DNA of 64,000 nt from Stictocephala bisonia (taxonomy: Eukaryota > Arthropoda > Insecta > Hemiptera > Membracidae). The notes under the pieces were generated by a model. That model had not been told where the DNA came from. It did not search any database and saw only the letters and a program-made list of their open reading frames with translations. The position numbers and the translations under genes were made by a program. This document shows positions 118-29,850 of the stretch, piece by piece; the stretch's first letter is position 1; each line of letters begins with the position of its first letter. The stretch lies in the NCBI GenBank assembly GCA_035578905.1, contig JAQJVL010000113.1, positions 248,001 to 312,000 of the forward strand, in the 5' to 3' direction.

Positions 118-1265
118 CTGGTTCCGGAGTTTTCTCAACAGGTGAATGTGGGTGAATTTTTGAGAACACCATTACCAGTTACCGTAGGTGTCCTCAGGGG
201 TCAGTATTGTCCGCTACATTATTCGTCATTTTTATTAATAATTTGTTAGAATTAGATTTTCATGGACATTTAACTGAATTTGCCGACGATATTGCATTCT
301 TCTACTCAAATAAAAACGTTGTATCCCTAGAAGCAGAGATTTTTAATGATCTGAGTAAGTTACGAGTTTGGTGTCACTACAATAGAATGGAAGTAAATGT
401 GAAAAAAACAAAATACATACATTTTGGTTATAAAGGGTTTGATTTTCCAACCATTCAGAAATACCATTCGATTGATTGTACTTACACAGATAATTGTAAC
501 TACGAAGGAATTGAAAAGGTAACTAATTTTAAATATCTTGGAATAATTTTAGATGAGAAACTAAATTGGAAAAACACACTTTGGAAATACACAATAAAAT
601 AAAATTTTCCATAAGATCGTTTTACTGCCTGAAAAACTTATGTGACGAAAATTTGTTACGTTCTTTATATCGTGCCTTAGTACAATCACGATTACAATAT
701 GGTTCAGCTTGCTGAGGAGACACTTTTAAAAGTCACGTGAACTGGTTGAGAACAACACAACATTATTTTATACAATGTATGTATGACTGAGGTGTTACTG
801 TGGTGTATATAGTAAAAATTATAGTTAGTATAGTCTTGACAATTGCTATGCATTTATTGTAATGTTCCTGTCAATAAAATATTTGATTTGATTGATTTTA
901 TTAGATTAATTATGAATCAAAATAGACTAGTGAGTTCCTATCCGCTATATCAGCAACTAAAGATTTTACCTATGCAACACTTGTATGTATATAATGTCCT
1001 TAAATTATTCTACCAAAGGAGTGGGAATAGAATTACTGAAAAGTCTTCGTTCTGTACTAGAAATGTTACAAAAAATATGTTACGCACTCCAAAGGTGAAT
1101 AAAGCATTTTTTAGTCACTCCTTTAAGTATAAAGGCCCAACACTTTTTAATAGTCTACCAGCTAATATCAAGGAAAGCAATTTAATAAAGCCTTTTACAT
1201 CTAAATTAATAAGTTGGCTGTTTACCCAGTCAGATTTAAGCTGGTTGAATAATATTTTAGTGTAA
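118..1265 (+). pseudogene. Decayed non-LTR retrotransposon reverse transcriptase (Jockey/CR1-like), C-terminal half
   Basis: A reverse transcriptase remnant, broken by frameshifts and stops. From the start: a WFRSFL block (about 118-145) typical of the region before the active site; then PQGSV (192-206), out of frame with the preceding Gly-Val codons because one base is missing; then LFVIFINNLLEL and the catalytic FADD motif (about 280-295) within a 131-codon open stretch (207-602). After a frame change at about 600 the text resumes with LRSLYRALVQSRLQYGSAC, then TGA where Trp is usual, then GDTFK. A 140-codon open stretch (843-1265) carries the conserved C-terminal domain, with RTPKVNKAFFSHSFKYKGPT and LFNSLPANIKE followed by a final WLF-type block. 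The endonuclease and the N-terminal RT blocks lie before the window or are lost. Seen: motif order. Known: this arrangement is standard for Jockey/CR1-clade ORF2. Certainly not functional. Confidence 0.9.
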
Positions 1266-5345: not shown

Positions 5346-6138
5346 GTTAACACTACAATTGATTGTCATATTTTCTTCATAAATCTCATTTAACGATGTA
5401 AATAGTCGTATGCATTACACTATTTACCTTAAGTCCACTAAATAAAATTAAAATTTCGGTTGGAATTAGCCATAATAAATACGTAAAGACAGCATTATAT
5501 TAATTTTTTTATAAAATGTAACAATTTTCAATTATTACTCTAAAATATTAAGAATAAAACGCGTTTTATGGATTTTTAAATAACAGTTAGTTTTAGTTCT
5601 TTATCAAGCTGAATATCTTTTTTCATCTAAATTAGTTTAATTCTTTAGTGTTTTGAATACACCTAAAAATTCGTAAACCAAATCACAGAGGGATTCTAAA
5701 AGTATCCTTTTATAAAGGAAATTAAGTAAATTTTGTACCGAAGGATATCATAATAGCACTACCCCCCAAGTGTTCCCGGTTATTCCTAAGAATCCAAATA
5801 AATAAAAAGTTTAATTTCTTTATTTATACAATAATTTTGCCTTCTACAACATGATCTCTATTATGAAAACTCTCTTTATAAATGAGTTTTTAGCTATTTT
5901 GGTGTAACTGACTTAAAATTATATATAACTACATATATTGAAAGACAGAATGGAGCTATTTTTTGATAAATCATAGATTCAGATGTTCCTTCTTTTCACT
6001 GATATATAAATACTCTACTAAATATTAATAACTTTTTATAAACATCAACCTATGTAAATGCTTTTCTAAACCTCAGTCCCTTCTTTATGATCGTATTTTT
6101 TTTAAAAAGTATTAACAAAAATCTCTATAAATAATGTA
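5346..6138. other. Unassigned A+T-rich spacer
   Basis: No gene or repeat family recognised. Confidence 0.6.
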
Positions 6139-6633
6139 TATACTTATTTACTTACTTACTTACTTACTTATTTACTTTTACTTACTTCCTTGCTTGCTTG
6201 CTTGCCTGCTTGAATGCTTGCCTGCTTGCTTGCTTGCCTGCTTGCTTGCTTGCCTGCTTGCTTGCTTGCTTACTTACTTACTTTTACTTACTTACTTACT
6301 TTCACTTACTTACTTTTACTTACTTACTTACTTTTACTTACTTACTTACTTACTTGCTTACTTCCTTGCTTGCTTGCTTGCCTGCTTGAATGCTTGCCTG
6401 CTTGCTTGCTTGCCTGCTTGCTTGCTTGCCTGCTTGCTTGCTTGCTTACTTACTTACTTTTACTTACTTACTTACTTACTTTCACTTACTTACTTTTACT
6501 TACTTACTTACTTTTACTTACTTACTTACTTTTACTTACTTACTTACTTTTACTTACTTTTACTTACTTACTTACTTACTTACTTTTACTTACTTACTTA
6601 CTTTTACTTACTTACTTTTACTTACTTTTACTT
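6139..6633 (+). repeat. Compound tetranucleotide field (CTTA/CTTG/CCTG/TTTA)n with higher-order repeat
   Basis: Runs of ACTT, GCTT and GCCT tetramers interrupted by TTTTACTT and TTTCACTT. A G-containing block at about 6186-6270 recurs at about 6361-6445, so a higher-order unit of roughly 175 bp was duplicated. The open frames of 230-310 codons here (Leu-Thr-Tyr and Leu-Ala-Cys polymers) exist only because the period has no stop in these frames; they are not genes. Confidence 0.95.
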
Positions 6634-7046
6634 ACTCACTCACTCACTCACTCACTCACTCACTCACTCACTCACTCACTCACTCACTCACTCACTCACT
6701 CACTCACTCACTCACTCACTCACTCACTCACTCACTCACTCACTCACTCACTCACTCACTCACTCACTCACTCACTCACTCACTCACTCACTCACTCACT
6801 CACTCACTCACTCACTCACTCACTCACTCACTCACTCACTCACTCACTCACTCACTCACTCACTCACTCACTCACTCACTCACTCACTCACTCACTCACT
6901 CACTCACTCACTCACTCACTCACTCACTCACTCACTCACTCACTCACTCACTCACTCACTCACTCACTCACTCACTCACTCACTCACTCACTCACTCACT
7001 CACTCACTCACTCACTCACTTACTTACTTACTTACTTACTTACTTC
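6634..7046 (+). repeat. (CACT)n microsatellite, nearly 100 uninterrupted units
   Basis: About 385 bp of pure ACTC/CACT tetramer with no visible interruption, returning to ACTT units at about 7020-7046. Read in frame it gives a Ser-Leu-Thr-His polymer. Its purity implies recent expansion. The exact length may be limited by assembly. Confidence 0.97.
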
Positions 7047-7555
7047 ATCTATGTAAGTGTATTTAAGAATGTCAATACATTTTAAAAAATTGTATAGTTG
7101 TTAATCATGACAAATATTTGAAATTGCTAAACATCCATTAATAAAAAGCTGTTTCAGAATTCATATTATTAATTTTGTTAAGGGGAAAGTATGAAATTTT
7201 AAATTTGCTCTGTGTTTAATTTTAAATACAGCAAACTGTCTGGCTCGTGGCGTAATTGATGTACTTTAATTTTATCAATTTAATATAAAAACCAAATAAA
7301 TATAGACAATAATTGTGTACTTACTCAGTTATATCAAGGTTTCTTGATTATATCTGCATGATTTACACAGAAAACAACCATTTAAAGCAATCCAATATAG
7401 TTTTTGTAGGAGTAGGTATATTAAATTAGGTCATAAAAGTTGATTTACTTTATTCTAAAAATAAGTTATATACAGAAGTTTGAACATTTATGTTTCCTAT
7501 ATCTCAAAAACAGTTAGCTTTATCTATTGCTCGCGCTTGGATATAAATTACGTAC
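7047..7555. other. Unassigned A+T-rich spacer
   Basis: Nothing recognised, except that TTAAATTAGGTCATAAAAGTT (about 7420-7440) recurs with changes just right of the next minisatellite (about 7815-7835), giving a loose direct repeat around it. Confidence 0.5.
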
Positions 7556-7702
7556 TCAATACCACAGTACGTGTATGGGCGGGCTGGTGGGTCAATACCA
7601 CCGTACGTGTATGGGTGGGCTGGTGGGGCAATACCACAGTACGTGTATGGGTGGGCGGGTGGGTCAATACCACAGTACGTGTATGGGTGGGCGGGTGGGT
7701 AA
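7556..7702 (+). repeat. 36-bp G-rich minisatellite, 4 copies, with perfect G-quadruplex motifs
   Basis: Units of the type CAATACCACAGTACGTGTAT followed by a G-rich block. Two units contain GGGTGGGCGGGTGGG exactly (7649-7663 and 7685-7699), four G3 tracts with 1-nt loops. The same minisatellite family occurs at 29.15-29.4 kb and 30.98-31.16 kb. The open frames on both strands result from the period being a multiple of 3. Confidence 0.95.
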
Positions 7703-8743
7703 ACGTAAACGTACATTCCGGGTGCATATATGTAATACACTACTGCTGTAATACGGGGGGTATATAGCTTATCGGGTATACAGCTTATCGGCAACATTTA
7801 CAAGTTACCCTATAGTTAAATTAGGTCGTAAAGTTGGCTAGCCATGATATTCTATATCATAGGCAGTGACAAGTAAAATTAAAACACTCAAACGCATTTT
7901 CCCCCTAAAATGTTATTTATAGTCTTTTATTATTTTTTATTTTAATTTTATTGAACTCCAAACCTGGTATCATTTTCTAATTTACATATTTTTAATTTCA
8001 TATTTTATACTTTTTTATTTCTAAAACATTTATAACAGTATAATTTGTTTATAACAATAAATGTTTTGACATTTATTTCTTCTTCGTGTTTATTTTCAAT
8101 AAAGTTCCAACATTTACCAAGAACATTATTATTAGACCGTACTCCTATAAAATAGCTGAGAAAATGTTGTCTATTAGGAAATTGTGATATTGTAGAAACA
8201 CCTTTTAATTTAACCATAATATTTTGTATGTGTTAAGTTTAATAACAAAGTTTTTATTTTATATTATTCTATTTCTTATTGACAAATAGCTAAAAAATTT
8301 AAATAATATTTCTAAAATACGCAACAACAATAATACACAACCACCCCTTTGTTAGCAGGTGTTCTATGGGGATGGGAGAACATCTCCAACCTGAAGGCAG
8401 GTTGACTGACACGTAATCATGCTCGGAGTTTTTTATAATGTTAGCCGTTTGAAAGCAATGTTAACTTACACCTTATTGAAATACAGATAAAAATCAAAAA
8501 ATTAAAAAATAGGGTTAGTGAAAAGCAAAATAAATTGTATTAAAATCTATCTAAACGTGTTGATACCATAACATTGTTATCTGTGTTTATTTTATTTTAT
8601 TTATTATTTTTTTCTAGCATTATTCTTGCTGAAATCCGTAATTATTCCGTTGTTTCATGATCTAAAAACGGAAACACTAGATAACCTGTTTAAAGGTTTC
8701 TACCAGATTTGCTGTACAGGAGTATGTATTTTATTATTGCAAG
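7703..8743. other. Unassigned A+T-rich spacer left of the giant element
   Basis: No supported gene. A 70-codon minus frame (8005-8217) has no recognisable feature. A slightly G+C-richer patch at 8340-8415 was not assigned. Confidence 0.55.
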
Positions 8744-8749
8744 TGTCAG
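8744..8749 (+). repeat. Left target-site duplication TGTCAG
   Basis: TGTCAG ends exactly where the inverted repeat begins (8750) and is repeated exactly at 21721-21726 where the other arm ends. A 6-bp duplication is the length known for Polinton/Maverick integration. Confidence 0.88.
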
Positions 8750-8780
8750 AGTAGTGTAAAACGCGGGTTCTGGGAGACCT

Positions 8781-9103
8781 TTTGACCTCTGTTATCAGTG
8801 TTATCACCACGTGTTGACCCCAGAGGTCAACTTTACTATTGTTTACAACTGATAATCAGCAAGGTCGTTGACCTTTCATTGATAATCACCACGTGGTGAC
8901 CTTGAAGGTCAAGTTTACTACGAGCACGTGGACCCCCCGCGACGTTGTCGTAGGTCAGTGTTGTTTTGGTGTGACGTCATACCGTTTTCGCGCTCTTTTT
9001 TCTGTCAGTAGTACACACATACTATTGTTTACTACAAGCACGTGGACCCCCCGCGATGACGTTGTCCTAGGTCAGTGTTGTTTTGGTGTGACGTCACGCC
9101 GTA
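8781..9103 (+). promoter_or_regulatory. Terminal cluster of palindromic factor-binding motifs (left arm)
   Basis: Seen: GTTGACCCCAGAGGTCAAC (8813-8831), AAGGTCGTTGACCTT (8861-8875, an inverted repeat of AGGTCA-type half sites with one spacer base, one mismatch), CACCACGTGGTG (8887-8898, perfect palindrome with an E-box), TGACCTTGAAGGTCA (8897-8911, perfect odd palindrome), and two TGACGTCA (CRE) sites at 8972-8979 and 9089-9096. A module of about 75 bp containing AGCACGTGGACCCCCCGCGA and the CRE is directly duplicated (8913-8985 and 9027-9102). Known: IR-1 AGGTCA sites bind ecdysone-receptor-type nuclear receptors and TGACGTCA binds CREB/ATF. Inferred: promoter, enhancer or transposase/host-factor binding at the tip. 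Confidence 0.6.
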
Positions 9104-9160
9104 TTTATTAAAATTAATTGTATTTATTTGAATTGCTGTGGCAAAAAGTGTCGAAGACCG

Positions 9161-9225
9161 GTGCCGGGATCGATCCTAGAACCTTCCGTTTGTGAAACGG
9201 AGTCGATACCACCGCAGCACAGTGA
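9161..9225 (-). ncRNA. tRNA-like (Val-CAC type) pol III unit, degenerate, left arm
   Basis: Read on the minus strand: TGCTGCGGTGGTATCGAC (box A/D-arm-like), then TCCGT-TTCACAA-ACGGA, a perfect 5-bp anticodon stem with a 7-nt loop showing CAC (Val), then AGGATCGATCCCGG, box B-like. The T stem pairs poorly and no full acceptor stem is evident, so it is more likely a tRNA-derived or SINE-head promoter than a functional tRNA. The identical copy is in the right arm. Confidence 0.5.
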
Positions 9226-9294
9226 CACACCCGAGAGGGTAACGTAAGTAGCGGCAGAAGAACGTGTGTGGCTTCGTTCGCTTCGCTCGACGAG

Positions 9295-10700
9295 CCACGT
9301 TATACTATATGAAATGTATTTTTAATTCGTATTTAATATAGTATTAATTTGTTCAGATGTGAAAAAAAAGTCTGTTGGTTTGTCGTCTGCTCCTCAGCTG
9401 ATGTGATGCCATATGAAAGATGCAAAAAAAATTTCTGTTTTTCTTTATACTATATAAAATGTACCAACTGTTTTTTCGCAGTGTTACCAACTCGCACGAT
9501 TAATTGCAAAAAAATATCTCAGTGCTGCCAACTCACACGATTTATTACATTATACTATAATAAATACATATACGATTATTAAATTATACTATATTAAATA
9601 CAAACACGTTTTTCGGTGTTACAGTAATATTAATTTAAATTCGTTATCCTTTTACGTTAAAACTATAATAAATACAATTTTTCCACAATAATTCGTATTT
9701 AATATAGTATTAATGACCATTCCAACCGAAAAAAAATCAGTTTCTCTTTATACTATATAAAATGTACGAATTGTTTTTTCGCAGTGTTACCAACTCGCAC
9801 GATTAATTGGAAAAAAAATATATGTCAGTGCTACCAACTCACACGATTTATTACATTATACTATAATAAATACATATACGATTATTAAATTATACTATAT
9901 TAAATACAAACGCGTTTTTTCGGTGTTACAGTAATATTAATTTAAATTCGTTATCCTTTTTTACGTTAAAACTATAATAAATACATATACGATTATTAAA
10001 TTATACTATATTAAATACAAACGCGTTAATACATACGTTAAAACTGGTCGTTAAGTATTAGGAGAACAGAACTTGGTAAGAACTCTGAACTCGACCATTG
10101 GCGCAATAATTTGTATTTAATATAGTATTAATTTGTTCTGACCATTTAAACCAGATGTAAAAAAAAATCTGTTGGTTTTAGTACCAGCTGATGTGGTTCG
10201 CTTCGCTTACGCCGAGCCAGATGCATTAGTACTATATAAAATGTATTTTTCTAATAATTCGTATTTAATATAGTATTAGTTTGTTCAAACAAAATCGGTT
10301 TTTCTTTATATTATATAAAATGTACCAACTGTTTTTTCACAGTGTTGCTAACTCACACGATTATTTGCATTATACTATATAAAATACATATATATATATG
10401 ATTTTTTTCTCTTTTTTAATAAATACAAATGCGTTTTTCGGTGTTACAGTAATATTATTTTACCTTGTTTTCCTTCACATATAATGTATATAGCCAACTT
10501 ATGCTTTCATTCGTAGTATACTATAATAAATCTGTGTACTATAAAAAGTGCATCGATATTTATTCTTTGTCACGTTATAATATAATAATTGTTATGACGA
10601 TAAATTTAAACAGATTAAAAAGGATTCTGGTTTTTCTGTGTACATATTTTATTTCAATATTATACTTATATACTATATGAAGTACATTGTTCATAATAAA
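9295..10700. repeat. Array of TTATACTATA / TATAGTATAA motifs with about 300-bp tandem units (left arm)
   Basis: At least 15 occurrences of TATACTATA(A/T) or its complement, embedded in TTTAATATAGTATTAA and TATACTATATAAAATGTA contexts. Larger units recur: GTTTTTTCGCAGTGTTACCA ... CACGATTTATTACATTATAC ... TTCGGTGTTACAGTAATATT at about 9465-9660, 9770-9965 and a partial one at 10330-10460. A+T-rich, with motifs in both orientations. Role unknown; candidates are binding sites, promoters or replication-type repeats. Some copies equal TTATAGTAT on one strand (e.g. 9552-9560), the published late-promoter motif of insect nudiviruses; this may be chance. Confidence 0.8.
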
Positions 10701-10914
10701 TCACTATTTTCGTTGTACTATAATAAATGCAATTAATTTTTATATATAAATCAGTTAGAATATCTTTGAAACAGCTAACACATTTATATTTATTTATTTG
10801 TATTACAATAATAAATGTATATTTGTTAATATGTATTAATTTAAGTTAAATTTTTATGTTTTAATACATTTGAGTATTAGGAGAGCAAAGACTGGTAGGA
10901 GTTATCAATGTTAC

Positions 10915-11035
10915 AGTTGCCGCCTGCGGCATACAAAGTGTCACTATCGAATCAGCGCGACCCGGCGACCTCTCCGTAAGATAGTCCGACTGCCTCGCGA
11001 ACTGATTATGTGACTGCTGCTAATTTCTGCTAGCC
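10915..11035. other. GC-rich island with hairpin in the left arm
   Basis: TGCCGCCTGCGGCA (10918-10931) is a perfect 6-bp hairpin with a 2-nt loop. It heads a block of about 100 bp much richer in G+C than its surroundings. It follows GTATTAGGAGAGCAAAGACT, which resembles GTATTAGGAGAACAGAACTT at about 10056. Open frames of 37 codons (+) and 54 codons (-) cross it but show no recognisable domain. Confidence 0.5.
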
Positions 11036-11510
11036 TGATACTTTGTTTTTCATTGCATGTTGTTCGTATTCCATATTTAAGTGGTTTTTTCCATATATTT
11101 AGCAGATGTATAGAAAATAAAAAGCATATTTTATTTAATAATTAATTTAGTATTTAAAAATCCTAAGGTAATATACTATTCTATATTTTTGTAATGACAT
11201 AAGTAACACAATATTTAAATTCTGTTATGGGATAAGTTATAGTAATATTTAATTAATTATTTAAAAATCGTAAGGAGAAGTTGTATTGCAGATATTTTTG
11301 AAGTAATAAGTCGGACAATATTTAAATGTTATTTAAGAATAAAGTATAATAATGTCGATTATTAAATACTGAAAACTCTATAAAAAATACTGTCTTTTTT
11401 AAAACCAACTGATGTATTTGTATGGTATGAAATTGTCCAAGTCCAATTTTGCTGATGCAATGTTTCATCATGTGTACTTGTGGTAGTAAGACAATGGTAA
11501 GACAGATATA

Positions 11511-11715
11511 AAAATTCATATAATTCAATAAAAATCTGCAAAGAGCGGAACTTCATCTGTACATACATGTATCTCAACAACAACAACAACAACCAAAATT
11601 AAATCAATTGGTAAATATTTGTAAGAATGTTTATTTTTAATATATGTGGTAGTGAGGCAGATATAAAAATTCATATAATTCAATAAAAATCTGCAAAGAG
11701 CGGAAACTTCATCTC
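11511..11715. repeat. Direct repeat pair (48 bp) in the left arm
   Basis: The block beginning AAAATTCATATAATTCAATA and ending GCGGAACTTCATCT occurs at 11511-11558 and again at 11667-11715 with one extra A. A (CAA)n run lies between them (about 11575-11592). Mirrored in the right arm (18745-18950). Two overlapping frames of 68-76 codons cross it on the minus strand (11322-11592); conservation between the arms only reflects arm identity. Confidence 0.85.
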
Positions 11716-12179
11716 AGATATGTAGAATTATGAGTTAAGGAGTTCAATTATTATTCCCTCACACGTTAACTAAAACAATCGAATAATATTGAATTACGAG
11801 CCATCTTTAGACATATTTAATATTACAATATGTAGCATTTACTTTAAGATATCAAATAAAGCCTCTCTATTTACAACAATACTTCAATAAGTTACATTCT
11901 ACTTATGACAAGGGTTTTAAAATAAAATTTGCTATACATTTCATTTCAGACTTATTAAACAAAACGTCATTCATCATTTGCATACTTAAGTCTTCTATTG
12001 AGAGGATGTTTTTTGAGTGAGTGTATGAATATAGAATGGGAAAATAATAGTTTATTTTCTCTAATATAATAAAATAGGCTATAGATGTGAAATTCTCTAT
12101 TCATTTTCTTTCAGATTTCCATTAGGATCTTACACATAAGAGCCTTACGTAAAATTTAAATCTAATATGTTAAACACAT

Positions 12180-13560
12180 TAGAGATTACAGTTATGTAAA
12201 TATTAAATGGACAAAAATGTTTAATTTCTTCATGAAAGGATCTTCATACATGTCCAACTATTATAATATTCCTGAGAGAAACGATTAATTATAAATGGCA
12301 CTTTAAGTTAATAACATGTTTTTTCCTGTTTTGTAAAGATAAATTCTCTTATTAACGAATTAAGTAAATAAAAAAACAATTCTATGAATCCATTAATAAC
12401 TGTATAGTGTATTAAATGTTGCATATTATTTTGACAATTTTATAATAATAATTGCCTTTTCTTATAATTTCAACATAAATATCACAAACACGTATTGAAA
12501 ACATTGAACTTTCAAATAACTTAAAAAAATTGTGACCGATTCAACATGAATAATTCATTTTAGTGAGATCAGAATAACTTCATTAATATAGATTTATTAA
12601 AAAAAGACATATTATTTGTTTATAGCAATAATAAATTATACTTTGTTACTAATTTTATCACATAAAAACTAAAATCATTAGCTCACTTTGAATGGAAAAA
12701 ACAATATAATACAATATAGATGTTAAATTCAATATACATTTAATTTCAGATATGCGTACAAAACGTTCTTCTACACTTGCATCCTTGAGTGCATACATAT
12801 GCGTTATGTTTAAGATGAGACATGTCTTGTATATGAGAAATTATCTAAGTTCCATTTTATCAGTGTCCGTATGTTGAGTAAGGATGAGAACTGAGTATCA
12901 GGCTTGTCAATTAGTTGAAAATCAGACCAATAATACATGTTTTTGATTCAACTCTATGTCCCTTAATTTCACTGGTTGTTAGACTTTAAATGAAATGTCC
13001 GTTCTATGAAACACTGTCTTGTCATATCTAAGAATAATACTTTATATTGTTTTCACTTAAAATGAGCCACGAGAGTAAATACTATAATGGACGTTATGTT
13101 TAAATAATTTGTATAACACAGGGTATACCAAATCAACCGTTTAAGTATATACTTCTTTTGTCTACATATCTTCTATATTCAGTTTAATGATAGAAATAAA
13201 GATGTAATGAAAATTATAGCAAAATAAATTAAACTTAGCTAAGTAAATTAATTTAGTGTTTTCATAATGATATTTTTATTAGTATTCGCATTATAGATTT
13301 CTAAATAAATGGCAAACTTTAGAGCTTGCAGTTCTGTATATATGGATATATATTAAATGGATAAAAATGTTTAATATCTCAAATAAAGGATCTTCATACA
13401 TGTCCATTTATTATAATAAACATGAGAGAAACGACTAAATATAAATGACACTTTAAATTAAAAAGTATAATTTTTTCCTATTTTGTAAAGATAGTTTCTC
13501 TTATCAATGAATTGGGTAAATAAAACAACAATTTTATGAATCCATTAATATTATAGTTTT
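12180..13560. repeat. Diverged internal modules of the element (left arm)
   Basis: A module of about 240 bp with the order 'attaaatgg(a)caaaaatgttta', 'aaaggatcttcatacatgtc', 'gagagaaacga', 'ttttttcctgttttgtaaag' and 'atgaatccattaata' occurs at 12180-12430 and 13320-13550. Related copies continue in the loop (14285-14460 and 15295-15545). The inner element therefore grew by repeated duplication of about 1-kb units. Confidence 0.75.
12862..13025 (+). mobile_element. SINE family 1 fragment inside the left arm
   Basis: ACTGAGTATCAGGCTTGTCA and the following 'ttgaaaatcagacca' match the SINE-like repeat at 2571-2625 with few changes. Downstream 'tcccttaatttcactggttgtta' resembles 'tcccttagttgccctggctgttg' of that copy. 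A shorter related fragment ending in 'gagaactgagtatt' is at 13562-13602. Present in both arms, so it predates the arm duplication. Confidence 0.65.
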
Positions 13561-14854
13561 CTCAATGTCCGTATTTTGTGCAGGGAAGAGAACTGAGTAT
13601 TACTGTCGGCTGAGCAGAACGAAAGAAGGATAAACGAAAAAATTAGTTTAATTTCTTGTTAGTATAATGCAAATAAATGCAAGTCTGTGTCATTGATGAA
13701 AATAAAAGTATTATCGATTAACAATTAAGCTGACTTAGTGATATGGTTCAAGTGGGGTCAAGCGTATGATAGCACACTCGAACTAGAAGTCTAAACTAAA
13801 TATACCAGTTATATTAACTTTAAAACCTAAGTAAATCGGTCAAAAAGGTCATATATGAGTAACTAAATTAATAAAATATGTATTTTTTAATTAAATTGAT
13901 TTTCAATTACGTTTGAATTTTAGTTTTTTCTAAAATGCCTGATAAACATTGCTAATAAATGACTATAACACCAATGTTTTAATAGTTAACTATTCTGAAT
14001 GTTTTACATTTGAGTAAACAAATACTATGATTAGTCGTTTAAGAGCTTTATATCAAGACATATTCTCTACTATGTATTGTACATTTACTTAACAGTAATA
14101 TAAAATACTGGATTTATAAGATATAACATGATTTTACAGAGTTATATTTCAATTTTGTGAAGCGATAAATATCTAATAACGCTTAAATTGTATAGTGATA
14201 AAAATTTTTAGATAACTAATGAGTAACTGGGTGTTTCTATATTTTTAGTTAATTTATATATTTATTTACCTCAATCACCCCATAAATATGAATTAATACA
14301 AGACATCAACATCACAGGAATGCTGAATGACAATCAGTGTAAAGCTGGTTTTTCACATTTTCTAAAAGATAATTAAACAGATAAAACAAAAATTTATAAT
14401 TCCGTTAATTACTACATAGTGAATTGAATGTTACATAGTATGCTACTAGTTCATAAAATAGTCTTTTGCTTATGACTGATTTTAAGTGTATAATTTATTT
14501 TGTTAAACATGACAATACTAAGGAGAAAATGTAAACTACAAAACAAATACGACCAACCTAATTGCATTGAACTAGTGTCAGTCCATTTATAAATATACAC
14601 TTATGTAAATGTTTTTTTCTGTGTGTGATCCTTATTGATCGACTTCTTTTAAATTACAAACTAAAACGACTTAGACTAGAATATACAAGCCTTGTAAATA
14701 TAATACACTTCATATTTTGAATGGACAAAAACATTCATATACAACAATTATAAAAGGACAATCATTTTAAGACTTCATTTTTTATAAATACATATATTTA
14801 TTTCAAATAATATTTTTTACGATGCCAGACAATGGTGTATATTAGACTAATGGA

Positions 14855-14962
14855 TCATGAATGATCAGACAATACGCCGTTGTATCCTATGGTATATTGG
14901 TATAAAGGTGTCTTCTCTTGGAAAGTCAGTTTATCCAAACAAGGCTGATCATTACCACCTAT
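14855..14962 (-). CDS. Candidate terminal exon in the loop (unknown protein)
   Basis: About 34 sense codons without a stop, containing CLDKLTFQEKTPLYQYTIGY, ending at TGA (14855-14857), in very A+T-rich DNA. A pyrimidine-rich stretch ending in ATAG at about 14959-14963 could be a splice acceptor, since an in-frame stop lies just upstream. An AATAAA signal follows within about 80 bases. No family recognised. It could equally be a chance frame or a decayed coding remnant. Confidence 0.25.
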   Translation of the reverse strand: MGGNDQPCLDKLTFQEKTPLYQYTIGYNGVLSDHS

Positions 14963-16037
14963 GTAATATGACAATTAAAACCTTGTATACATATAATATA
15001 AAATTGATTTATTTCCATTGAAACTATCATATGGATAGTACTTGCTGTTCAAGTACAGTTTTATGTTATCTAAGTTACAATAATCCACCTCAATGACCTC
15101 ATAAATGTGATTTAATACAAGACATCAACATCGCAAAAATGTATGAATCAATCGATTTCTTTTAAATGGCCAACTAAATTAGTTTAGGATAAAAAATGAA
15201 GGTATTATACAAATCATACACTTCTTATATCACCATTAGGATACTATGCATAAGAGCGTCAAATAAAATGTTAGTCTAAAATGCTTTACATATCAGAGCT
15301 TGCAGTTCTGTAAATATAACTAGATATTAAATGAACGAAACATTTTTTATTTCTCAATGAAAGGATCCTCATACGTATTCAACTACTCTATTAAAACTTA
15401 GCGAAATGATTTAAATATGAATGACACTCAGTGTAAAGCAGGTTTTTTCCTATTTTGTAAAGATAATCAAACGGATAAAACAACAATTTTATAATTCCGT
15501 TAATAACTACATAGTGAATTGAATGTTACATAGTATGCTACTTGTATAATTTATTTTGGTAAACATGACAAAACAAATACGACCAACTTAGTTACATTGA
15601 ACTGGTGTCAGTCCATTTATAAATATACTTTCATGTAAATTACAAACTAAAACGACTTAGTAGACTAGAATATACAAGTCTTGTAAATATAATACACTTC
15701 TGAGATATCCATTATGAGCTTTAACTTACTTTATAGTGTTTCACATATTATTGTTTATTAGTCTGTATATCAAATAAATATTAAATATTTTGAACGTACA
15801 AAAACGTTCATTTTTCAAATATCGGATATAAATTCATAAACATCAATTATATCATACTTGAGCCAAGCTATTAAAATTAAAGTTCATCAATGTTCTTTTT
15901 TAACTGTAAATATAATTTATATAATGAGATATTTGGGTAAATAAAACAATATACGAGATGTTCTATGCAAGAAATATATCTTATTCTTTATTTATTTACA
16001 CATTTTTCACATCTTTATTTACAAATATTGTCCTTGA

Positions 16038-16148
16038 TCAGAATCTTTGAACTTGTGATTCTTCAACTCCTTTAAGCTCGGCCATTAGTCTGTTGTAGAG
16101 TTCTTCCCCACACTCTTTAGGACCAATGGTGGGTGGATAGTAACATAT
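16038..16148 (-). CDS. Candidate terminal exon in the loop (unknown protein)
   Basis: A minus-strand open stretch that reads ICYYPPTI followed by GPKECGEELYNRLMAELKGV and a short polar end, stopping at TGA (16038-16040). The composition (charged, amphipathic, no rare-codon runs) is more protein-like than other frames in the loop, and AATAAA signals follow at about 16010-16020 and 15985. A stop lies in frame at 16149-16151, so the 5' limit would be a splice acceptor such as CCTAAAG (about 16115). No family recognised. It may be the last exon of an element-borne or captured gene. Confidence 0.35.
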   Translation of the reverse strand: MCYYPPTIGPKECGEELYNRLMAELKGVEESQVQRF

Positions 16149-19100
16149 TTATATAAAATGCTGTCAAAATCAGACGGTTATGCTTAAATAGGATCCAGAA
16201 GTTGTTATTGTTATCTTAAAGATACTGTTTCATACTAAAAGTTCACTCTTAACAAGTGTGATAATAGCGATTTTTGAAGCTAAAAATACACATACGAATG
16301 AAAATAACTTACGTTAAATTTCAATACCCATAACACATATAAAAAGTCATGTAATATTTTTGTTATTTTTAGTATAATAAATATTAAAGAATATGAAACT
16401 AAATCAACTGCGATGATGCTATTAAAACGAGACTCAGCCATATTACATTTGTATTATTTTTATGATAACTCTTTTTAACACTTTTTTTCTTTAGTTAGCA
16501 TACATTTTTATTTATTCCCCAATAAATTAGATATGATTTCCATGGTTAGTTTTAGTTGACAGCCATTGTAAAACTATACATTGTGAAGCCCAATAAATGA
16601 ATTTGAATGTGAAGTGCAGTTGAACATACAATACCTTCCCTTTCATCCAAATAATGAACTTTATATTAAAGGTAGCACTAAAAAACCATATACTGTACGA
16701 ACAAAACTATATACTTTTATATAAATACAAATGTACATAACTAGACTTTATATTCGTATAATACATTTAAGTATGTAGGATTAACATTTGCATTATACTA
16801 ACAAGAAATTAAACTAATTTTTTCGTTTATCCTTCTTTCGTTCTGCTCAGCCGACAGTAATACTCAGTTCTCTTCCCTGCACAAAATACGGACATTGAGA
16901 AAACTATAATATTAATGGATTCATAAAATTGTTGTTTTATTTACCCAATTCATTGATAAGAGAAACTATCTTTACAAAATAGGAAAAAATTATACTTTTT
17001 AATTTAAAGTGTCATTTATATTTAGTCGTTTCTCTCATGTTTATTATAATAAATGGACATGTATGAAGATCCTTTATTTGAGATATTAAACATTTTTATC
17101 CATTTAATATATATCCATATATACAGAACTGCAAGCTCTAAAGTTTGCCATTTATTTAGAAATCTATAATGCGAATACTAATAAAAATATCATTATGAAA
17201 ACACTAAATTAATTTACTTAGCTAAGTTTAATTTATTTTGCTATAATTTTCATTACATCTTTATTTCTATCATTAAACTGAATATAGAAGATATGTAGAC
17301 AAAAGAAGTATATACTTAAACGGTTGATTTGGTATACCCTGTGTTATACAAATTATTTAAACATAACGTCCATTATAGTATTTACTCTCGTGGCTCATTT
17401 TAAGTGAAAACAATATAAAGTATTATTCTTAGATATGACAAGACAGTGTTTCATAGAACGGACATTTCATTTAAAGTCTAACAACCAGTGAAATTAAGGG
17501 ACATAGAGTTGAATCAAAAACATGTATTATTGGTCTGATTTTCAACTAATTGACAAGCCTGATACTCAGTTCTCATCCTTACTCAACATACGGACACTGA
17601 TAAAATGGAACTTAGATAATTTCTCATATACAAGACATGTCTCATCTTAAACATAACGCATATGTATGCACTCAAGGATGCAAGTGTAGAAGAACGTTTT
17701 GTACGCATATCTGAAATTAAATGTATATTGAATTTCACATCTATATTGTATTATATTGTTTTTTCCATTCAAAGTGAGCTAATGATTTTAGTTTTTATGT
17801 GATAAAATTAGTAACAAAGTATAATTTATTATTGCTATAAACAAATAATATGTCTTTTTTTAATAAATATATATTAATGAAGTTATTCTGATCTCACTAA
17901 AATGAATTATTCATGTTGAATCGGTCACAATTTTTTTAAGTTATTTGAAAGTTCAATGTTTTCAATACGTGTTTGTGATATTAATGTTGAAATTATAAGA
18001 AAAGGCAATTATTATTATAAAATTGTCAAAATAATATGCAACATTTAATACACTATACAGTTATTAATGGATTCATAGAATTGTTTTTTTATTTACTTAA
18101 TTCGTTAATAAGAGAATTTATCTTTACAAAACAGGAAAAAACATGTTATTAACTTAAAGTGCCATTTATAATTAATCGTTTCTCTCAGGAATATTATAAT
18201 AGTTGGACATGTATGAAGATCCTTTCATGAAGAAATTAAACATTTTTGTCCATTTAATATTTACATAACTGTAATCTCTAATGTGTTTAACATATTAGAT
18301 TTAAATTTTACGTAAGGCTCTTATGTGTAAGATCCTAATGGAAATCTGAAAGAAAATGAATAGAGAATTTCACATCTATAGCCTATTTTATTATATTAGA
18401 GAAAATAAACTATTATTTTCCCATTCTATATTCATACACTCACTCAAAAAACATCTTCTCAATAGAAGACTTAAGTATGCAAATGATGAATGACGTTTTG
18501 TTTAATAAGTCTGAAATGAAATGTATAGCAAATTTTATTTTAAACCCCTTGTCATAAGTAGAATGTAACTTATTGAAGTATTGTTGTAAATAGAGAGGCT
18601 TTATTTGATATCTTAAAGTAAATGCTACATATTGTAATATTAAATATGTCTAAATATGGCTCGTAATTCAATATTATTCGATTGTTTTAGTTAACGTGTG
18701 AGGGAATAATAATTGAACTCCTTAACTCATAATTCTACATATCTGAGATGAAGTTTCCGCTCTTTGCAGATTTTTATTGAATTATATGAATTTTTATATC
18801 TGCCTCACTACCACATATATTAAAAATAAACATTCTTACAAATATTTACCAATTGATTTAACTTTGGTTGTTGTTGTTGTTGTTGAGATACATGTATGTA
18901 CAGATGAAGTTCCGCTCTTTGCAGATTTTTATTGAATTACATGAATTTTTATATCTGTCTTACCATTGTCTTACTACCACAAGTACACATGATGAAACAT
19001 TGCATCAGCAAAATTGGACTTGGACAATTTCATACCATACAAATACATCAGTTGGTTTTAAAAAAGACAGTATTTTTTATAGAGTTTTCAGTATTTAATA

Positions 19101-19769
19101 ATCGACATTATTATACTTTATTCTTAAATAACATTTAAATATTGTCCGACTTATTACTTCAAAAATATCTGCAATACAACTTCTCCTTACGATTTTTAAA
19201 TAATTAATTAAATATTACTATAACTTATCCCATAACAGAATTTAAATATTGTGTTACTTATGTCATTACAAAAATATAGAATAGTATATTACCTTAGGAT
19301 TTTTAAATACTAAATTAATTATTAAATAAAATATGCTTTTTATTTTCTATACATCTGCTAAATATATGGAAAAAACCACTTAAATATGGAATACGAACAA
19401 CATGCAATGAAAAACAAAGTATCAGGCTAGCAGAAATTAGCAGCAGTCACATAATCAGTTCGCGAGGCAGTCGGACTATCTTACGGAGAGGTCGCCGGGT
19501 CGCGCTGATTCGATAGTGACACTTTGTATGCCGCAGGCGGCAACTGTAACATTGATAACTCCTACCAGTCTTTGCTCTCCTAATACTCAAATGTATTAAA
19601 ACATAAAAATTTAACTTAAATTAATACATATTAACAAATATACATTTATTATTGTAATACAAATAAATAAATATAAATGTGTTAGCTGTTTCAAAGATAT
19701 TCTAACTGATTTATATATAAAAATTAATTGCATTTATTATAGTACAACGAAAATAGTGATTTATTATGA

Positions 19770-21175
19770 ACAATGTACTTCATATAGTATATAAGTATAA
19801 TATTGAAATAAAATATGTACACAGAAAAACCAGAATCCTTTTTAATCTGTTTAAATTTATCGTCATAACAATTATTATATTATAACGTGACAAAGAATAA
19901 ATATCGATGCACTTTTTATAGTACACAGATTTATTATAGTATACTACGAATGAAAGCATAAGTTGGCTATATACATTATATGTGAAGGAAAACAAGGTAA
20001 AATAATATTACTGTAACACCGAAAAACGCATTTGTATTTATTAAAAAAGAGAAAAAAATCATATATATATATGTATTTTATATAGTATAATGCAAATAAT
20101 CGTGTGAGTTAGCAACACTGTGAAAAAACAGTTGGTACATTTTATATAATATAAAGAAAAACCGATTTTGTTTGAACAAACTAATACTATATTAAATACG
20201 AATTATTAGAAAAATACATTTTATATAGTACTAATGCATCTGGCTCGGCGTAAGCGAAGCGAATCACATCAGCTGGTACTAGCAGACGACAAACCAACAG
20301 ATTTTTTTTTACATCTGGTTTAAATGGTCAGAACAAATTAATACTATATTAAATACAAATTATTGCGCCAATGGTCGAGTTCAGAGTTCTTACCAAGTTC
20401 TGTTCTCCTAATACTTAACGACCAGTTTTAACGTATGTATTAACGCGTTTGTATTTAATATAGTATAATTTAATAATCGTATATGTATTTATTATAGTTT
20501 TAACGTAAAAGGATAACGAATTTAAATTAATATTACTGTAACACCGAAAAAACGCGTTTGTATTTAATATAGTATAATTTAATAATCGTATATGTATTTA
20601 TTATAGTATAATGTAATAAATCGTGTGAGTTGGTAGCACTGACATATATTTTTTTTTTCCCAATTAATCGTGCGAGTTGGTAACACTGCGAAAAAACAAT
20701 TCGTACATTTTATATAGTATAAAGAGAAACTGATTTTTTTTCGGTTGGAATGGTCATTAATACTATATTAAATACGAATTATTGTGGAAAAATTGTATTT
20801 ATTATAGTTTTAACGTAAAAGGATAACGAATTTAAATTAATATTACTGTAACACCGAAAAACGTGTTTGTATTTAATATAGTATAATTTAATAATCGTAT
20901 ATGTATTTATTATAGTATAATGTAATAAATCGTGTGAGTTGGCAGCACTGAGATATTTTTTTGCAATTAATCGTGCGAGTTGGTAACACTGCGAAAAAAC
21001 AGTTGGTACATTTTATATAGTATAAAGAAAAACAGAAATTTTTTTTGCATCTTTCATATGGCATCACATCAGCTGAGGAGCAGACGACAAACCAACAGAC
21101 TTTTTTTTCACATCTGAACAAATTAATACTATATTAAATACGAATTAAAAATACATTTCATATAGTATAACGTGG
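19770..21175. repeat. Array of TATAGTATAA motifs (right arm)
   Basis: Mirror of the left-arm array. On the plus strand it reads as repeated TTTAATATAGTATAATTTAA and TTATTATAGTATAATGTAAT; the second contains TTATAGTAT. Confidence 0.8.
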
Positions 21176-21244
21176 CTCGTCGAGCGAAGCGAACGAAGCC
21201 ACACACGTTCTTCTGCCGCTACTTACGTTACCCTCTCGGGTGTG

Positions 21245-21309
21245 TCACTGTGCTGCGGTGGTATCGACTCCGTTTCACAAACGGAAGGTTCTAGGATCGA
21301 TCCCGGCAC
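21245..21309 (+). ncRNA. tRNA-like (Val-CAC type) pol III unit, right arm
   Basis: Plus-strand copy of the left-arm unit: D-arm-like TGCTGCGGTGGTATCGAC, anticodon stem-loop TCCGTTTCACAAACGGA, then GGATCGATCCCGG. The same reservations apply: poor T stem and no clear acceptor stem. Confidence 0.5.
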
Positions 21310-21366
21310 CGGTCTTCGACACTTTTTGCCACAGCAATTCAAATAAATACAATTAATTTTAATAAA

Positions 21367-21690
21367 TACGGCGTGACGTCACACCAAAACAACACTGACC
21401 TAGGACAACGTCATCGCGGGGGGTCCACGTGCTTGTAGTAAACAATAGTATGTGTGTACTACTGACAGAAAAAAGAGCGCGAAAACGGTATGACGTCACA
21501 CCAAAACAACACTGACCTACGACAACGTCGCGGGGGGTCCACGTGCTCGTAGTAAACTTGACCTTCAAGGTCACCACGTGGTGATTATCAATGAAAGGTC
21601 AACGACCTTGCTGATTATCAGTTGTAAACAATAGTAAAGTTGACCTCTGGGGTCAACACGTGGTGATAACACTGATAACAGAGGTCAAAA
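21367..21690 (-). promoter_or_regulatory. Terminal cluster of palindromic factor-binding motifs (right arm)
   Basis: Mirror copy of 8781-9103, with both TGACGTCA sites, the CACCACGTGGTG palindrome and the AGGTCA-type inverted repeats conserved without visible change. Any transcription it drives would be inward from the tip or outward into flanking host DNA. Confidence 0.6.
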
Positions 21691-21720
21691 GGTCTCCCAG
21701 AACCCGCGTTTTACACTACT

Positions 21721-21726
21721 TGTCAG
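21721..21726 (+). repeat. Right target-site duplication TGTCAG
   Basis: Exact copy of 8744-8749, abutting the terminal ...TTACACTACT of the right arm. Confidence 0.88.
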
Positions 21727-23520
21727 ACTTTAATGTTAATCTTGAATTAATTTTCATATAAAACGGCTTTCATAAATTACACTACAGTTACATTAAAATG
21801 TTCTTAAAATATACAACATCAAGTCTGCCTTGAATTTATATCTAGGGTAAAAACCAATATCCCTGTTTAAACCTCTTTCAACTTGCAGACCTTAAGTAAG
21901 AACAAATTTTGGAATTTACAAATTTTATTGTAATCTAAATGGCGGTTATTTCTTTTATACGCCAGTATACACTGTCCACATGCGGCGTTGCGCTTGTAAA
22001 TCCGTCATCCCCTTTGTTTTTTGTTTATGAACTCGATTTTAAAAAGTGTTTAAGATTTCTCATTTTGATTTACGTTCATTGACTATTTATATTTCTCTTG
22101 TTCATTTGTATTTCATTTCCTGGTCTGTCTAAAATAAAGAAGCAGAATCAGTCTTATATTGGTGTTAATTAGAATTACTAAATTTAAATTCATACTGAAA
22201 TATTTAATGAGTTCAAATATTTTTGAATACGCCACTATTTAAATGTACCGTAATTGTTGCTCCGAATGAGATAAATTCTGTAAAATAATCTTCCCATATA
22301 GAGTTTGTTCCGACTGAATTGACTATTAACTTAACTACGCATTTTGTCGAAGTTCAAAGTAATACCCAAACTATTGAGAGTGTATGTGTGGTTTGTTTCT
22401 TTTTTCAATCATGATTAATATCTTTTTTGATTTGTTATTAAAAAAAAAACATAATGTAATTTTTTTTTGTTGAGAATAAAAAGTTTTCACATCATATCAA
22501 TGTGTTTTCTATTTGTTAGTAACATTTTATTACACAAAAATAAAATATTAAGGTGTAACAAAATAAAATTTATTGTTAAAACATCACATAAAACACTTGC
22601 AGGGACTTATTATTTCCAATTGACTTAAAAAGAAATACGTACCTGTTTTATAGCTGAATCATTATTTGCTTCAGAAAATTACAAAGTATGGAAACAGTTC
22701 AACCTTTGATTAATTAACTGTTCTCAATGCGGACTTCGTTTCTTTTTTGTTACTTTTGATAACCTAATATCCACTTACAACGTTCTTTCATATACTTTCC
22801 CTACAAGGTCTTGTATGACACTAACTTTGTATTCAGAATGCTACAACTTGACAACTCATACACCATTTTAAAATTCAACAAAAAACCCTTTATTAATGTG
22901 TGATAAAGTGTTGAACTAAGTACCCTAAGGTATCATAATAACTATGGATATTTTCTATATCTTTTTATCTGAAACCAGTTTTCTACGAAGAACTATCTTA
23001 GTTTAAAGATTCTACAGATAAATTACCCCCCCCCCACCACCAACGGTTTTTGGGAGATTTATTTCTGTTAATCTCCCATTTATGCGTCTTCTAATGGGTT
23101 TCTTCTTTCTTAAGTACTATTAATAGAAAGTGTTCCTCTCAGCTGATCCAATCTGCCTTGTTCAGACTTAGGATTGAAAGTCCGACTTCGAAAACAATTA
23201 TTGTATCCGTTATTTATACAAAATGTGAAATAATTATTATTTATTTATTTTTCTTTTTTTTAGCCAAATATTTACCTACTTGGTCCAATAAATATTTATT
23301 TTAAAAAAACAGCTATTTTAATTTAATGATTTTGAAAGATTAAAATATCTCACGTAACAGTAAATTAGATGTGTGTTGTGTAGTAAGATATAAACATAGA
23401 TAAATTATTTCAATTTGAGAGCTTTATTTTCAAATTACACACAATTATACAACTAAATGAGGAATGATAATCAAGTCGTATTCATGTCTTCATTGTTATG
23501 TTCGTAAAAAAAATGCTTTT
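21727..23520. other. Unassigned A+T-rich region
   Basis: No gene or repeat family recognised. A C9 run lies at about 23026-23034. Confidence 0.55.
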
Positions 23521-28034: not shown

Positions 28035-29151
28035 TTCAGTGTCATTAACTCCTGATAATAGCTGCACAGCATCCCTCTTCCCTATAAAGGTGACAGTCAG
28101 CCCGAAAGAGGGTTTTTGTTACTTAAGATCTTACTTGGGACAGAGTGAAATAATCATCTAATTATTGCTAAACAAACACAACAACTATACACTTAATTGT
28201 TTAATTTGTTGGACTAGTAACAATATTAGATGATTTTTTTAATAAACTGCTGTATAAAATAATTTAATTCTTTTATTATCCCACTGTGGGGCAGTAAAAG
28301 CACAACATACAATAAAATTATAAAGCCAATAGAACAGAAGTAACACTAAAACAAAAACCTATTTTTATCTCATTCTTCAATTATTAATTATTAATGAAAT
28401 GAAAGACTGATTTTTTTTCCACAATTCATCTAGATATAATAAAAATAAAAGAAAACAGATCACAATAAGTCATTTCAACATTCAAACAAAATAAAAAGAT
28501 CGTTTTGATCGATCTTGATTCAGTTACTGTTTCTGACAAAAAATATAAATGAAGTGAATGTCAATTCCTCATTGACTGTCTGCACTGTACTCTACAACGC
28601 TCGCCCATTTTGTACAGAAAATGTCATATTTTTCTATCTAAAAGATTTATAATTACGTTCTAAAACACATAAATCAGTTTGGTTGCGTATTGCTTGTTTC
28701 TAGGTCAATAAATAAACTTTAAACGGCGGAAACAAATATTATCAAAACTATAAAACATTATGTAGAATTTAAACCAGAATGCCTCTTAAGGGCTGTGACT
28801 TTAGAGTTAAATAGAAGGGTTGAACATAACAAGTAAAAAAAAGAGAAGTATGAAGACTATCGGACAAATATTTATTTGTCCGATCAGGTAAGAGGTACTG
28901 TGTTGGCTTTACATTCTCATATTATTAAGTTCTTTACAGTAAACATTTTCTAAGTAGGCACTGATTGGTTGATTAAATATTGTTGACTCAATTTTGTTCA
29001 CCGTATGGCAACGAGTATACGAGTACAAACTATAAGATAGAAAAAATATTTCAGTTCATAATTATTTATAATATTGTACAATAATGGGTTTACTATAGCA
29101 ACAATAATAACCAATTTAAATACCCTATAGTTTTAAAATTGGTTTAATTTG

Positions 29152-29405
29152 CTACTGTACGTGTATATGTGGGCGGATGGGTCAATACTACTGCACTTTG
29201 ATGAGTGGACGGGTGGGTCAATACTACTGTACGTGTGTGGGTGGGCGGGTGGATCAATACTACTGCACTTGTATGAATGGACGGGTGGATCAATACTACT
29301 GCACTTGTTTGGGTGGGCAGGTGGGTCAATACTACTGTACGTGTATGGGTGGGCAGGTGGGTCAATACTAATGCACTTGTATGTGTGGGCAGGTGGGTCA
29401 ATACT
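29152..29405 (+). repeat. 36-bp G-rich minisatellite, 7 copies
   Basis: Units GTGGGTCAATACTACTGTAC-GTGTATGGGTGGGC(A/G)G with variants (CACTTG for ACGTG). Same family as 7556-7702. It lies outside the strong left arm and runs in the same orientation as the array on the other side, although the arms are inverted. Confidence 0.93.
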
Positions 29406-29850
29406 ATAGTTCGAATAAAATAACTTTGGTACTGGCGGAACGGCCTCACGCCACTGGTCTGAAATGACAAAACTCTGAGCTTTAACTTGCTGTCAAACGT
29501 AAAATAAGTAAGCAATAATTTTCAAACTAATTGTATAGTGTACACCATTTTATATTCTTTAAGGAAAAATTATGCTGGAGATTTTTCTATAGCTAATTTG
29601 CTTTTTAAAGTGATATTTGTATTTAAAAACACATGAAGTGAAATTGCACGTGAGTCGTCTTTAACCTGTCACTGTTGCGAGAATAATAATAATAAAATAA
29701 TATCTTGTGGATGGATGACAGTTTGATTTATTGTGATTAGTTTGGTATAAGTCTCATTTAATAATTTTAACAGGTTAATGAGAAATTAATTTTTTTGTAA
29801 ACCCTTGCAAACTCTGAAACGAAAAACGCTAGACAAAATTTCTTTGAGCA
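29406..29850 (+). repeat. Core left arm of the second inverted-repeat element
   Basis: From AGTTCGAATAAAATAACTTT to about CGCTAGACAAAATTTC; pairs with 30530-30970 at roughly 85-90% by eye. Confidence 0.88.

What the first reader, a model, noticed from the sequence alone, without database searches (positions are those of the whole stretch)
8744..21726. A 13-kb fold-back element with about 4.9-kb near-identical arms and a clean 6-bp target-site duplication
Seen: arms 8750-13674 and 16786-21720 are inverted copies, bounded exactly by TGTCAG on both sides, with AG...CT termini. Known: Polinton/Maverick elements make 6-bp TSDs, start with AG and have long TIRs. Unusual: the arms make up three quarters of the element and no polymerase, integrase or capsid gene is present. 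It may be a new non-autonomous giant-TIR derivative or a new class of integrating element.
Basis: partly seen in the sequence, partly recalled or inferred. Interest (0 to 1): 0.92.

Follow-up and report, generated by a model that had tools for sequence, protein, structure and literature searches.

The report
Mirror-image dimers of a virus-like transposon
The 13-kb mirror-image element is a damaged copy from a young family of giant palindromes that look like inverted dimers of a virus-like transposon (a Polinton), with the same transposon end on both sides and inserted into the chromosome like the parent.

Summary
In detail: arms 8750-13674 and 16786-21720 (9 substitutions, 3 indels in 4937 columns) between AG...CT tips and exact TGTCAG duplications. 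Of 22 facing tip pairs examined in this genome, 20 have exact 6-bp duplications, all different. The same tips bound ~20.5-kb coding Polintons (DNA polymerase, integrase, capsid, ATPase). The window element belongs to a gutted family (centre sequence on at least 39 contigs). Ten members read in detail are palindromes with arms up to about 9 kb and loops of 207-979 bp. In all 20 arms, three Polinton landmarks lie in the order of a Polinton read from its right tip inward: right-end sequence, 3' capsid scrap, left-end gene scrap. So they look like inverted dimers with two right ends. The window copy lost its axis through a ~6-kb deletion found nowhere else, hence short arms and a 3.1-kb 'loop'. 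C301 (18.2 kb, AACGAT duplication) has PolB mirrored at equal distances from its tips and capsid sequence at its middle, so such dimers probably arose more than once. Mechanism (inferred): fold-back synthesis during replication, then ordinary Polinton integration. Arms are alike within elements (0.15% against 0.85% re-paired). Empty sites could not be tested. New variant of a known kind.

The parts
8744..8749 (.). left copy of target-site duplication TGTCAG
8750..13674 (+). left arm (4925 bp), 9 substitutions and 3 indels from the right arm
8750..9346 (+). outer part of Polinton TIR (94.6% to L029 92-703; TIR of the coding Polintons is about 835 bp)
9593..11479 (-). scattered short segments (45-73 bp) of right-end-specific Polinton sequence in the left arm (probe L030 8700-9479)
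13675..16785 (+). apparent loop: unpaired inner part of the left arm; in relatives this stretch, or most of it, occurs as inverted pairs
14806..15085 (-). antisense scrap of the Polinton major capsid gene (residues 302-362 and 390-420 of the L030 ORF)
16029..16128 (-). scrap of the left-end Polinton gene n131 (97% to L029 1224-1323)
16785..16786 (.). deletion junction found only here (5979 bp missing relative to C146, including the axis; 2-bp microhomology AT)
16786..21720 (-). right arm (4935 bp)
18981..20877 (+). the same short right-end-specific segments in the right arm
21721..21726 (.). right copy of target-site duplication TGTCAG

Best explanation
The element is a defective member of a Polinton-mobilised family of inverted dimers. 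SHOWN: same tips and 6-bp duplications as coding Polintons; three Polinton landmarks collinear with a Polinton read from its right tip inward, in both arms of ten relatives; single-copy loops of 0.2-1.0 kb at their axes; arms alike within elements; window axis lost by a deletion found only here; a second element (C301) with PolB mirrored about its middle. INFERRED: an internally deleted Polinton lost its left end as linear DNA; during strand-displacement replication the free 3' end folded back on its own strand and primed synthesis out to the right tip. This gives a palindrome with two right ends. Both ends keep the TIR, so the palindrome can be replicated by the Polinton's polymerase and integrated by its integrase in trans. 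Displaced single strands of such a genome snap back along the arms, which would re-template one arm on the other and keep the arms alike. In the chromosome the long palindrome is fragile, and in this copy a deletion took out the axis. I put about 0.85 on 'Polinton-mobilised inverted dimer' and about 0.5 on the fold-back-during-replication step.
For: TSDs at 20 of 22 facing tip pairs. Coding relatives between the same tips: rve integrase, A32-type ATPase, double jelly-roll capsid, dUTPase and a DNA polymerase ORF (PHROG 1907, 2.8e-7); its probe lies between the tips in C2178, C4260, C4720, C176, C274, C3058, C1631. 20 of 20 arms collinear right-specific > capsid 3' > n131; control: the right-end probe has no hit in the left half L029. 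C146 left end matches the Polinton right end at 98% for about 1.6 kb, beyond the 835-bp TIR; its right end carries the same right-specific 0.75 kb at 97%, starting 835 bp from the tip. Loops 207-979 bp, homologous between elements. Centre on 39 contigs among 40 scored hits of 140 candidates. Mean left-right divergence 0.148% against 0.855% for shuffled pairing, 0 of 20000 shuffles; sister arms cluster in 8 of 10. C301: AACGAT at both tips, PolB probe inverted at 7312 and 7298 bp from the tips (7312 in C4260), capsid sequence at the middle.
Against: In four of the ten (C5372, C5458, C323, C7554) and in the window the right-specific matches are short (45-120 bp). In eight elements the axis lies 1.4-1.8 kb beyond the n131 scrap, in sequence without a match to the Polinton left TIR, so the fold point is not tied to the left end. 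Window 10.5-14.8 kb (but for 63 bp), 15.1-16.0 and 16.1-16.8 kb match neither Polinton half that I held. C301 is known from its tips, probe positions and 321 middle bases only; its junction was not read. Sister arms do not cluster in C2716 and C7819; the window's outer arms differ more from each other (0.30%) than from the nearest other element (0.10%). By shared coverage the sister arm is the best partner for 15 of 22 arms, ties for 1 and loses for 6 (unequal pieces). C7554 and C4987 have discordant arms. The polymerase ORF has no Pfam PolB or PDB match, so 'protein-primed' is taken from the family, not tested. The n131/left-end assignment rests on one coding copy.
Confidence: 0.68

Rival explanations
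1. TIR expansion: an ordinary non-autonomous Polinton whose right TIR spread inward onto the left side by gene conversion or break-induced replication in the chromosome until only a short centre stayed unpaired.
For: Within-element homogenisation is real. TIR recruitment of internal sequence is described for Galileo (PMC3573991, passages read). Fold-back members exchange modules: C323 has another tip on a 98% core; C219 is half coding and half fold-back by hit positions.
Against: The arm spans a whole gutted unit, right tip to a left-end gene, not half a unit as conversion to the midpoint would give. C301 has PolB at right-end distance from both tips.
Confidence: 0.19
2. Composite: two Polinton derivatives inserted close together in opposite orientation, deleted between, then moved as one unit by the two outer right ends.
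For: Would give two right ends. C3248 has inverted PolB copies and tip-like ends 36 kb apart without matching flanks, as two insertions might.
Against: Arms more alike than different copies would need later homogenisation. No tip within 3 mismatches in the four inner regions searched.
Confidence: 0.09
3. Assembly artefact.
For: Palindromes are hard to assemble. C4987 and C3248 lack a TSD; C7554 and C4987 have discordant arms.
Against: Unique different flanks with exact different 6-bp duplications, also in contigs of 1-14 Mb (C2, C113, C146, C323, C301); arms differ by point mutations.
Confidence: 0.02
4. A new class of integrating element with its own machinery.
For: No ORF of 80 aa or more in the window copy.
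Against: Shares tips, TIR and gene scraps with coding Polintons in the same genome.
Confidence: 0.01

Closest known systems
Polinton/Maverick (adintovirus-like) elements
   Same: AG...CT tips, 6-bp TSD, TIR; 20.5-kb coding relatives in the same genome with integrase, capsid, ATPase, DNA polymerase
   Different: no genes in the window copy; two right ends; arms up to about 9 kb in relatives; palindromic dimer layout
Fold-back TIR transposons (Drosophila FB, Galileo)
   Same: long inverted arms, non-autonomous, arm recruitment and chimeric copies with unmatched flanks (Galileo: PMC3573991, passages read)
   Different: Galileo is a P-superfamily element with TIRs up to about 1.26 kb in that paper and 7-bp flanks; here Polinton tips, 6-bp TSDs and arms up to about 9 kb
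Adenovirus 12 SYREC / symmetric adenovirus genomes (recalled; the papers listed are not about them)
   Same: protein-primed linear genome with the same end on both sides of a giant palindrome
   Different: adenovirus forms are packaged defective genomes; here integrated, amplified transposons; no packaging tested
Ordinary internally deleted Polinton (C1410, 6.1 kb, this genome)
   Same: same tips and a TSD
   Different: right-end sequence at one side and left-end sequence at the other, not palindromic at the points read

Membership tests
Polinton/Maverick | 6-bp target-site duplication (recalled as typical) | tested here: met
   window TGTCAG; 20 of 22 facing tip pairs in all
Polinton/Maverick | AG...CT ends and TIRs (recalled as typical) | tested here: met
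Polinton/Maverick | encodes protein-primed PolB and DDE integrase (PMC6431247, passages) | tested here: not met
   absent from the window copy; integrase and a DNA polymerase ORF in coding relatives with the same tip. So it is a non-autonomous derivative, not an autonomous Polinton
Polinton/Maverick | descent from a Polinton | tested here: met
   TIR, right-end segments, capsid and n131 scraps in the window; same in ten relatives
Fold-back transposon (FB/Galileo) | long inverted arms with short loop | tested here: met
   ten relatives; the window copy has a longer loop after axis deletion
Fold-back transposon (FB/Galileo) | P-superfamily transposase or its 7-bp flanks | tested here: not met
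   6-bp TSDs and Polinton coding relatives
SYREC-like symmetric genome | same genome end at both sides | tested here: met
   right-end-specific sequence in both arms of ten relatives and, as short segments, of the window
SYREC-like symmetric genome | extrachromosomal, packaged, terminal-protein-bound form | not testable with these tools
   needs DNA from tissue or particles

The most novel reading that the evidence does not exclude
Polintons in this genome repeatedly throw off symmetric genomes with two copies of one end. One gutted line of these became a successful parasite of the Polinton: it replicates by protein priming from two identical ends, resets its arms to identity at each round by snap-back of the displaced strand, and re-integrates. 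It would be a heritable counterpart of adenovirus symmetric defective genomes.
Probability: 0.35. Interest if true: 0.82.

Novelty: new variant of a known kind. Interest (0 to 1): 0.72.

Why it matters
Polintons are described as replicating with a protein-primed polymerase (PMC6431247, passages), an inference from their genes as far as I recall. A family of integrated right-right dimers, plus a second element of that layout with PolB in both halves, would be a genomic footprint of how such linear genomes misreplicate and of how a defective form can spread on a helper. It also puts palindromes of up to about 19 kb, probably dozens of them, into one genome: a natural test of palindrome fragility and axis deletion, of which the window copy looks like a case.

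Tried and rejected
Chance or artefact as source of the repeat: rejected on TSDs and flanks. tRNA or known RNA: none in the window or in the nine loci scanned, none in window 8600-21900. Left TIR or tip remnant near the axis: none found (ten inner ends, four inner regions). Relatives in viral contigs: none by exact tip pattern or capsid. C3248 as a 36-kb coding dimer: inverted PolB, a left tip at 29213 and a right tip inferred from six bases ending at 65501, but flanks CACACT and CAGTGT do not match; left open. The capsid census scored 40 of 505 candidates and did not reach C301. An integrase census was asked five times and never answered; searches with window 13400-13950 and 10500-13600 did not complete. 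Empty site: the joined-flank search was asked 11 times and never answered. Literature: among the papers listed by searches I saw none on palindromic or dimeric Polintons (titles and abstract starts; others listed only part of what they found); passages of PMC6431247, PMC12721341 and PMC3573991 were read; PMC1450207 (the 2006 Polinton paper) is not held.
Full report
OBSERVATION. The arms are at the stated coordinates and differ by 9 substitutions and 3 indels in 4937 columns. Tips and TGTCAG duplications are exact. There is no ORF of 80 aa or more inside.

THE TIP IS A POLINTON TIP. The window lies in contig C113 of a 1.68-Gb genome (organism not named). The first 407 bases match at 99% or more at all 40 places scored, of 1010 candidates. 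The exact 30-mer occurs 44 times, 13 times as facing pairs on one contig; a second tip type occurs 15 times, 5 times as pairs. All 18 pairs were read, plus C4720 and C176 (tips with mismatches), C301 and C3248. Of these 22, 20 have an exact 6-bp duplication, all different. C274's lies in a repetitive flank. C4987 has none; C3248 has none, and its right tip is inferred from six bases. Two coding copies from which I read one half each hold BIR, rve integrase (with a sub-threshold chromo match), an A32-type ATPase, PLA2, a double jelly-roll capsid, dUTPase and a 959-aa ORF with DNA polymerase similarity (PHROG 1907, E 2.8e-7; no Pfam PolB match; no meaningful PDB match). A probe from that ORF lies between the tips of C2178, C4260, C4720, C176, C274, C3058 and C1631 (40 of 252 candidates scored, 23 hits at 98% or more). 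The TIR of the coding copies is about 835 bp.

THE FAMILY. The window 'loop' occurs as inverted pairs at many other loci (35 of 1104 candidates scored). Ten relatives were fetched in pieces and studied in detail; C4987 and the middle of C2601 were fetched too but left out of the counts below (C4987 has discordant arms, C2601 only its middle). The ten are palindromes with arms up to about 9 kb and spacers of 322 (C323), 332 (C5458), 207 (C7819), 527 (C6380), 536 (C2716), 497 (C7554), 332 (C5372), 244 (C3145), 979 (C3164) and 471 bp (C146). Spacers are homologous between elements, which suggests one origin. The window copy has no match to any of the ten spacers. TSDs were read for three of the ten (C146, C323, C3164; all exact); for the other seven the tips were not in the pieces held.

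WHAT THE ARMS ARE. Three Polinton landmarks were placed in each of the 20 arms: right-end-specific sequence inside the TIR, the 3' part of the capsid gene, and the left-end gene n131. All 20 have them in the order and orientation of a Polinton read from its right tip inward. The right-end probe has no hit in the left half L029; the left-end probe has one 57-bp hit in the right half L030. The right-specific match is long (331-766 columns) in C146, C7819, C3145, C6380, C2716 and C3164, and short (56-120) in C5372, C7554, C5458 and C323. In C146 the left end follows the Polinton right end at 98% for about 1.6 kb, and the right end carries the right-specific 0.75 kb at 97%, starting 835 bp from the tip. 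The window copy has the same landmarks, the right-specific ones as 45-73 bp segments. Much of the rest of the arm matches neither Polinton half held. From n131 to the inner arm end is 1.4-1.8 kb in eight elements without a match to the left TIR. The dimer is therefore head to head, but the fold point is not tied to the left end.

THE WINDOW COPY. From 9680 inward it resembles C5372 (99.6% to 16128) and from 11869 C146 (98.4%, contiguous to 16785). Relative to C146, bases 1873273-1879251 are missing, with a 2-bp microhomology. The 34-base junction occurs only here (up to 2 mismatches). So the 3.1-kb loop is one-armed remainder after an axis deletion, possibly in place.

ARM SYNCHRONY. Over a 2.1-kb inner segment of ten elements, mean left-right divergence is 0.148% against 0.855% for re-paired arms; 0 of 20000 shuffles reach it. 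Sister arms cluster in 8 of 10 (C5372's are identical and tie with the window; the C146 fork has 87/87 support); C2716 and C7819 do not. By distance 7 of 10 are closer to the sister than to any other element (C7554 by a hair), C5372 ties, C2716 and C7819 are not. The window's own outer arms differ by 0.30%, with another element at 0.10%. By coverage at 96% identity or more, the sister is the best partner for 15 of 22 arms, ties for 1 and loses for 6; pieces are of unequal extent. The clearest cases are C323 (1.00 against 0.31) and C3164 (0.96-1.00 against 0.57-0.61). C7554 and C4987 have discordant arms, and C4987 has no TSD, like recombinants between copies.

RECURRENCE. C301 has tips at 1085455 and 1103681 with AACGAT on both sides, the PolB probe inverted at 7312 and 7298 bp from the tips (7312 in C4260), and 321 middle bases that are capsid sequence at 99% in one orientation. 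By these positions it is an inverted dimer of right ends with PolB in both halves, separate from the window family. The sequence between these points and its junction were not read. C323, C2, C29, C31 and C1991 carry the second tip type, all five with TSDs; C323 and C2 also hold the family centre.

ORDINARY DERIVATIVES exist as well: C1410 (6.1 kb) has right-end sequence at one side and left-end sequence at the other. C30 (6.85 kb) holds related core sequence (81-86%) in one orientation at the points read.

MECHANISM. Shown: Polinton-type integration, dimer layout of landmarks, synchrony, axis loss. Inferred: loss of one end of a linear Polinton, fold-back priming, copying out to the remaining tip, protein-primed replication in trans, snap-back resetting. 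The adenovirus parallel is recalled. No call tested replication.

VERDICT. A real, well-bounded Polinton derivative whose palindromic dimer layout I did not find described in the listings seen; the library holds only part of the literature.

Noticed in passing
G000:C219:888108-908161: Tips 20 kb apart with the fold-back centre near the middle, PolB and capsid hits in the left half and fold-back arm hits in the right half: a half coding, half fold-back chimera by hit positions.
   Followed up: partly
G000:C3248:29213-65501: Two PolB copies in opposite orientation at right-end distance from tip-like ends, 36 kb in all, but no matching target duplication.
   Followed up: partly
inner arms of C323, C7819, C2716, C7554, C5372: The small left-end gene n131 is open over the aligned part in both arms in 5 of 8 elements that hold most of it; it might be the one protein that the palindromes still make.
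   Followed up: partly
G000:C323:992554-1009989: A second tip type (AGTAGTATAATATGGGAG) on a core 98% identical to the window's: tips are swapped between lineages.
   Followed up: partly
L029 (C2178:19100-29000): The coding Polinton carries a BIR (apoptosis-inhibitor type) domain, a phospholipase A2-like domain and a T7 tail-fibre N-terminal domain.
   Followed up: no
window 43977-45243: GC-rich minisatellite open in frames of both strands (WLFVGWLSDAGTEGNGVKQRRA-like repeat).
   Followed up: no
window 6131-7085 and 7556-7700: Tetranucleotide-type repeat stretch and a 36-bp tandem repeat just left of the element.
   Followed up: no
window 29133-29521: Repeat with IDPPAHPYTYSS-like units on the - strand, akin in translation to the 36-bp repeat at 7556-7700.
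   Followed up: no
window 156-1265: Frames that look like a LINE reverse transcriptase (FADD-type motif, recalled; not tested).
   Followed up: no
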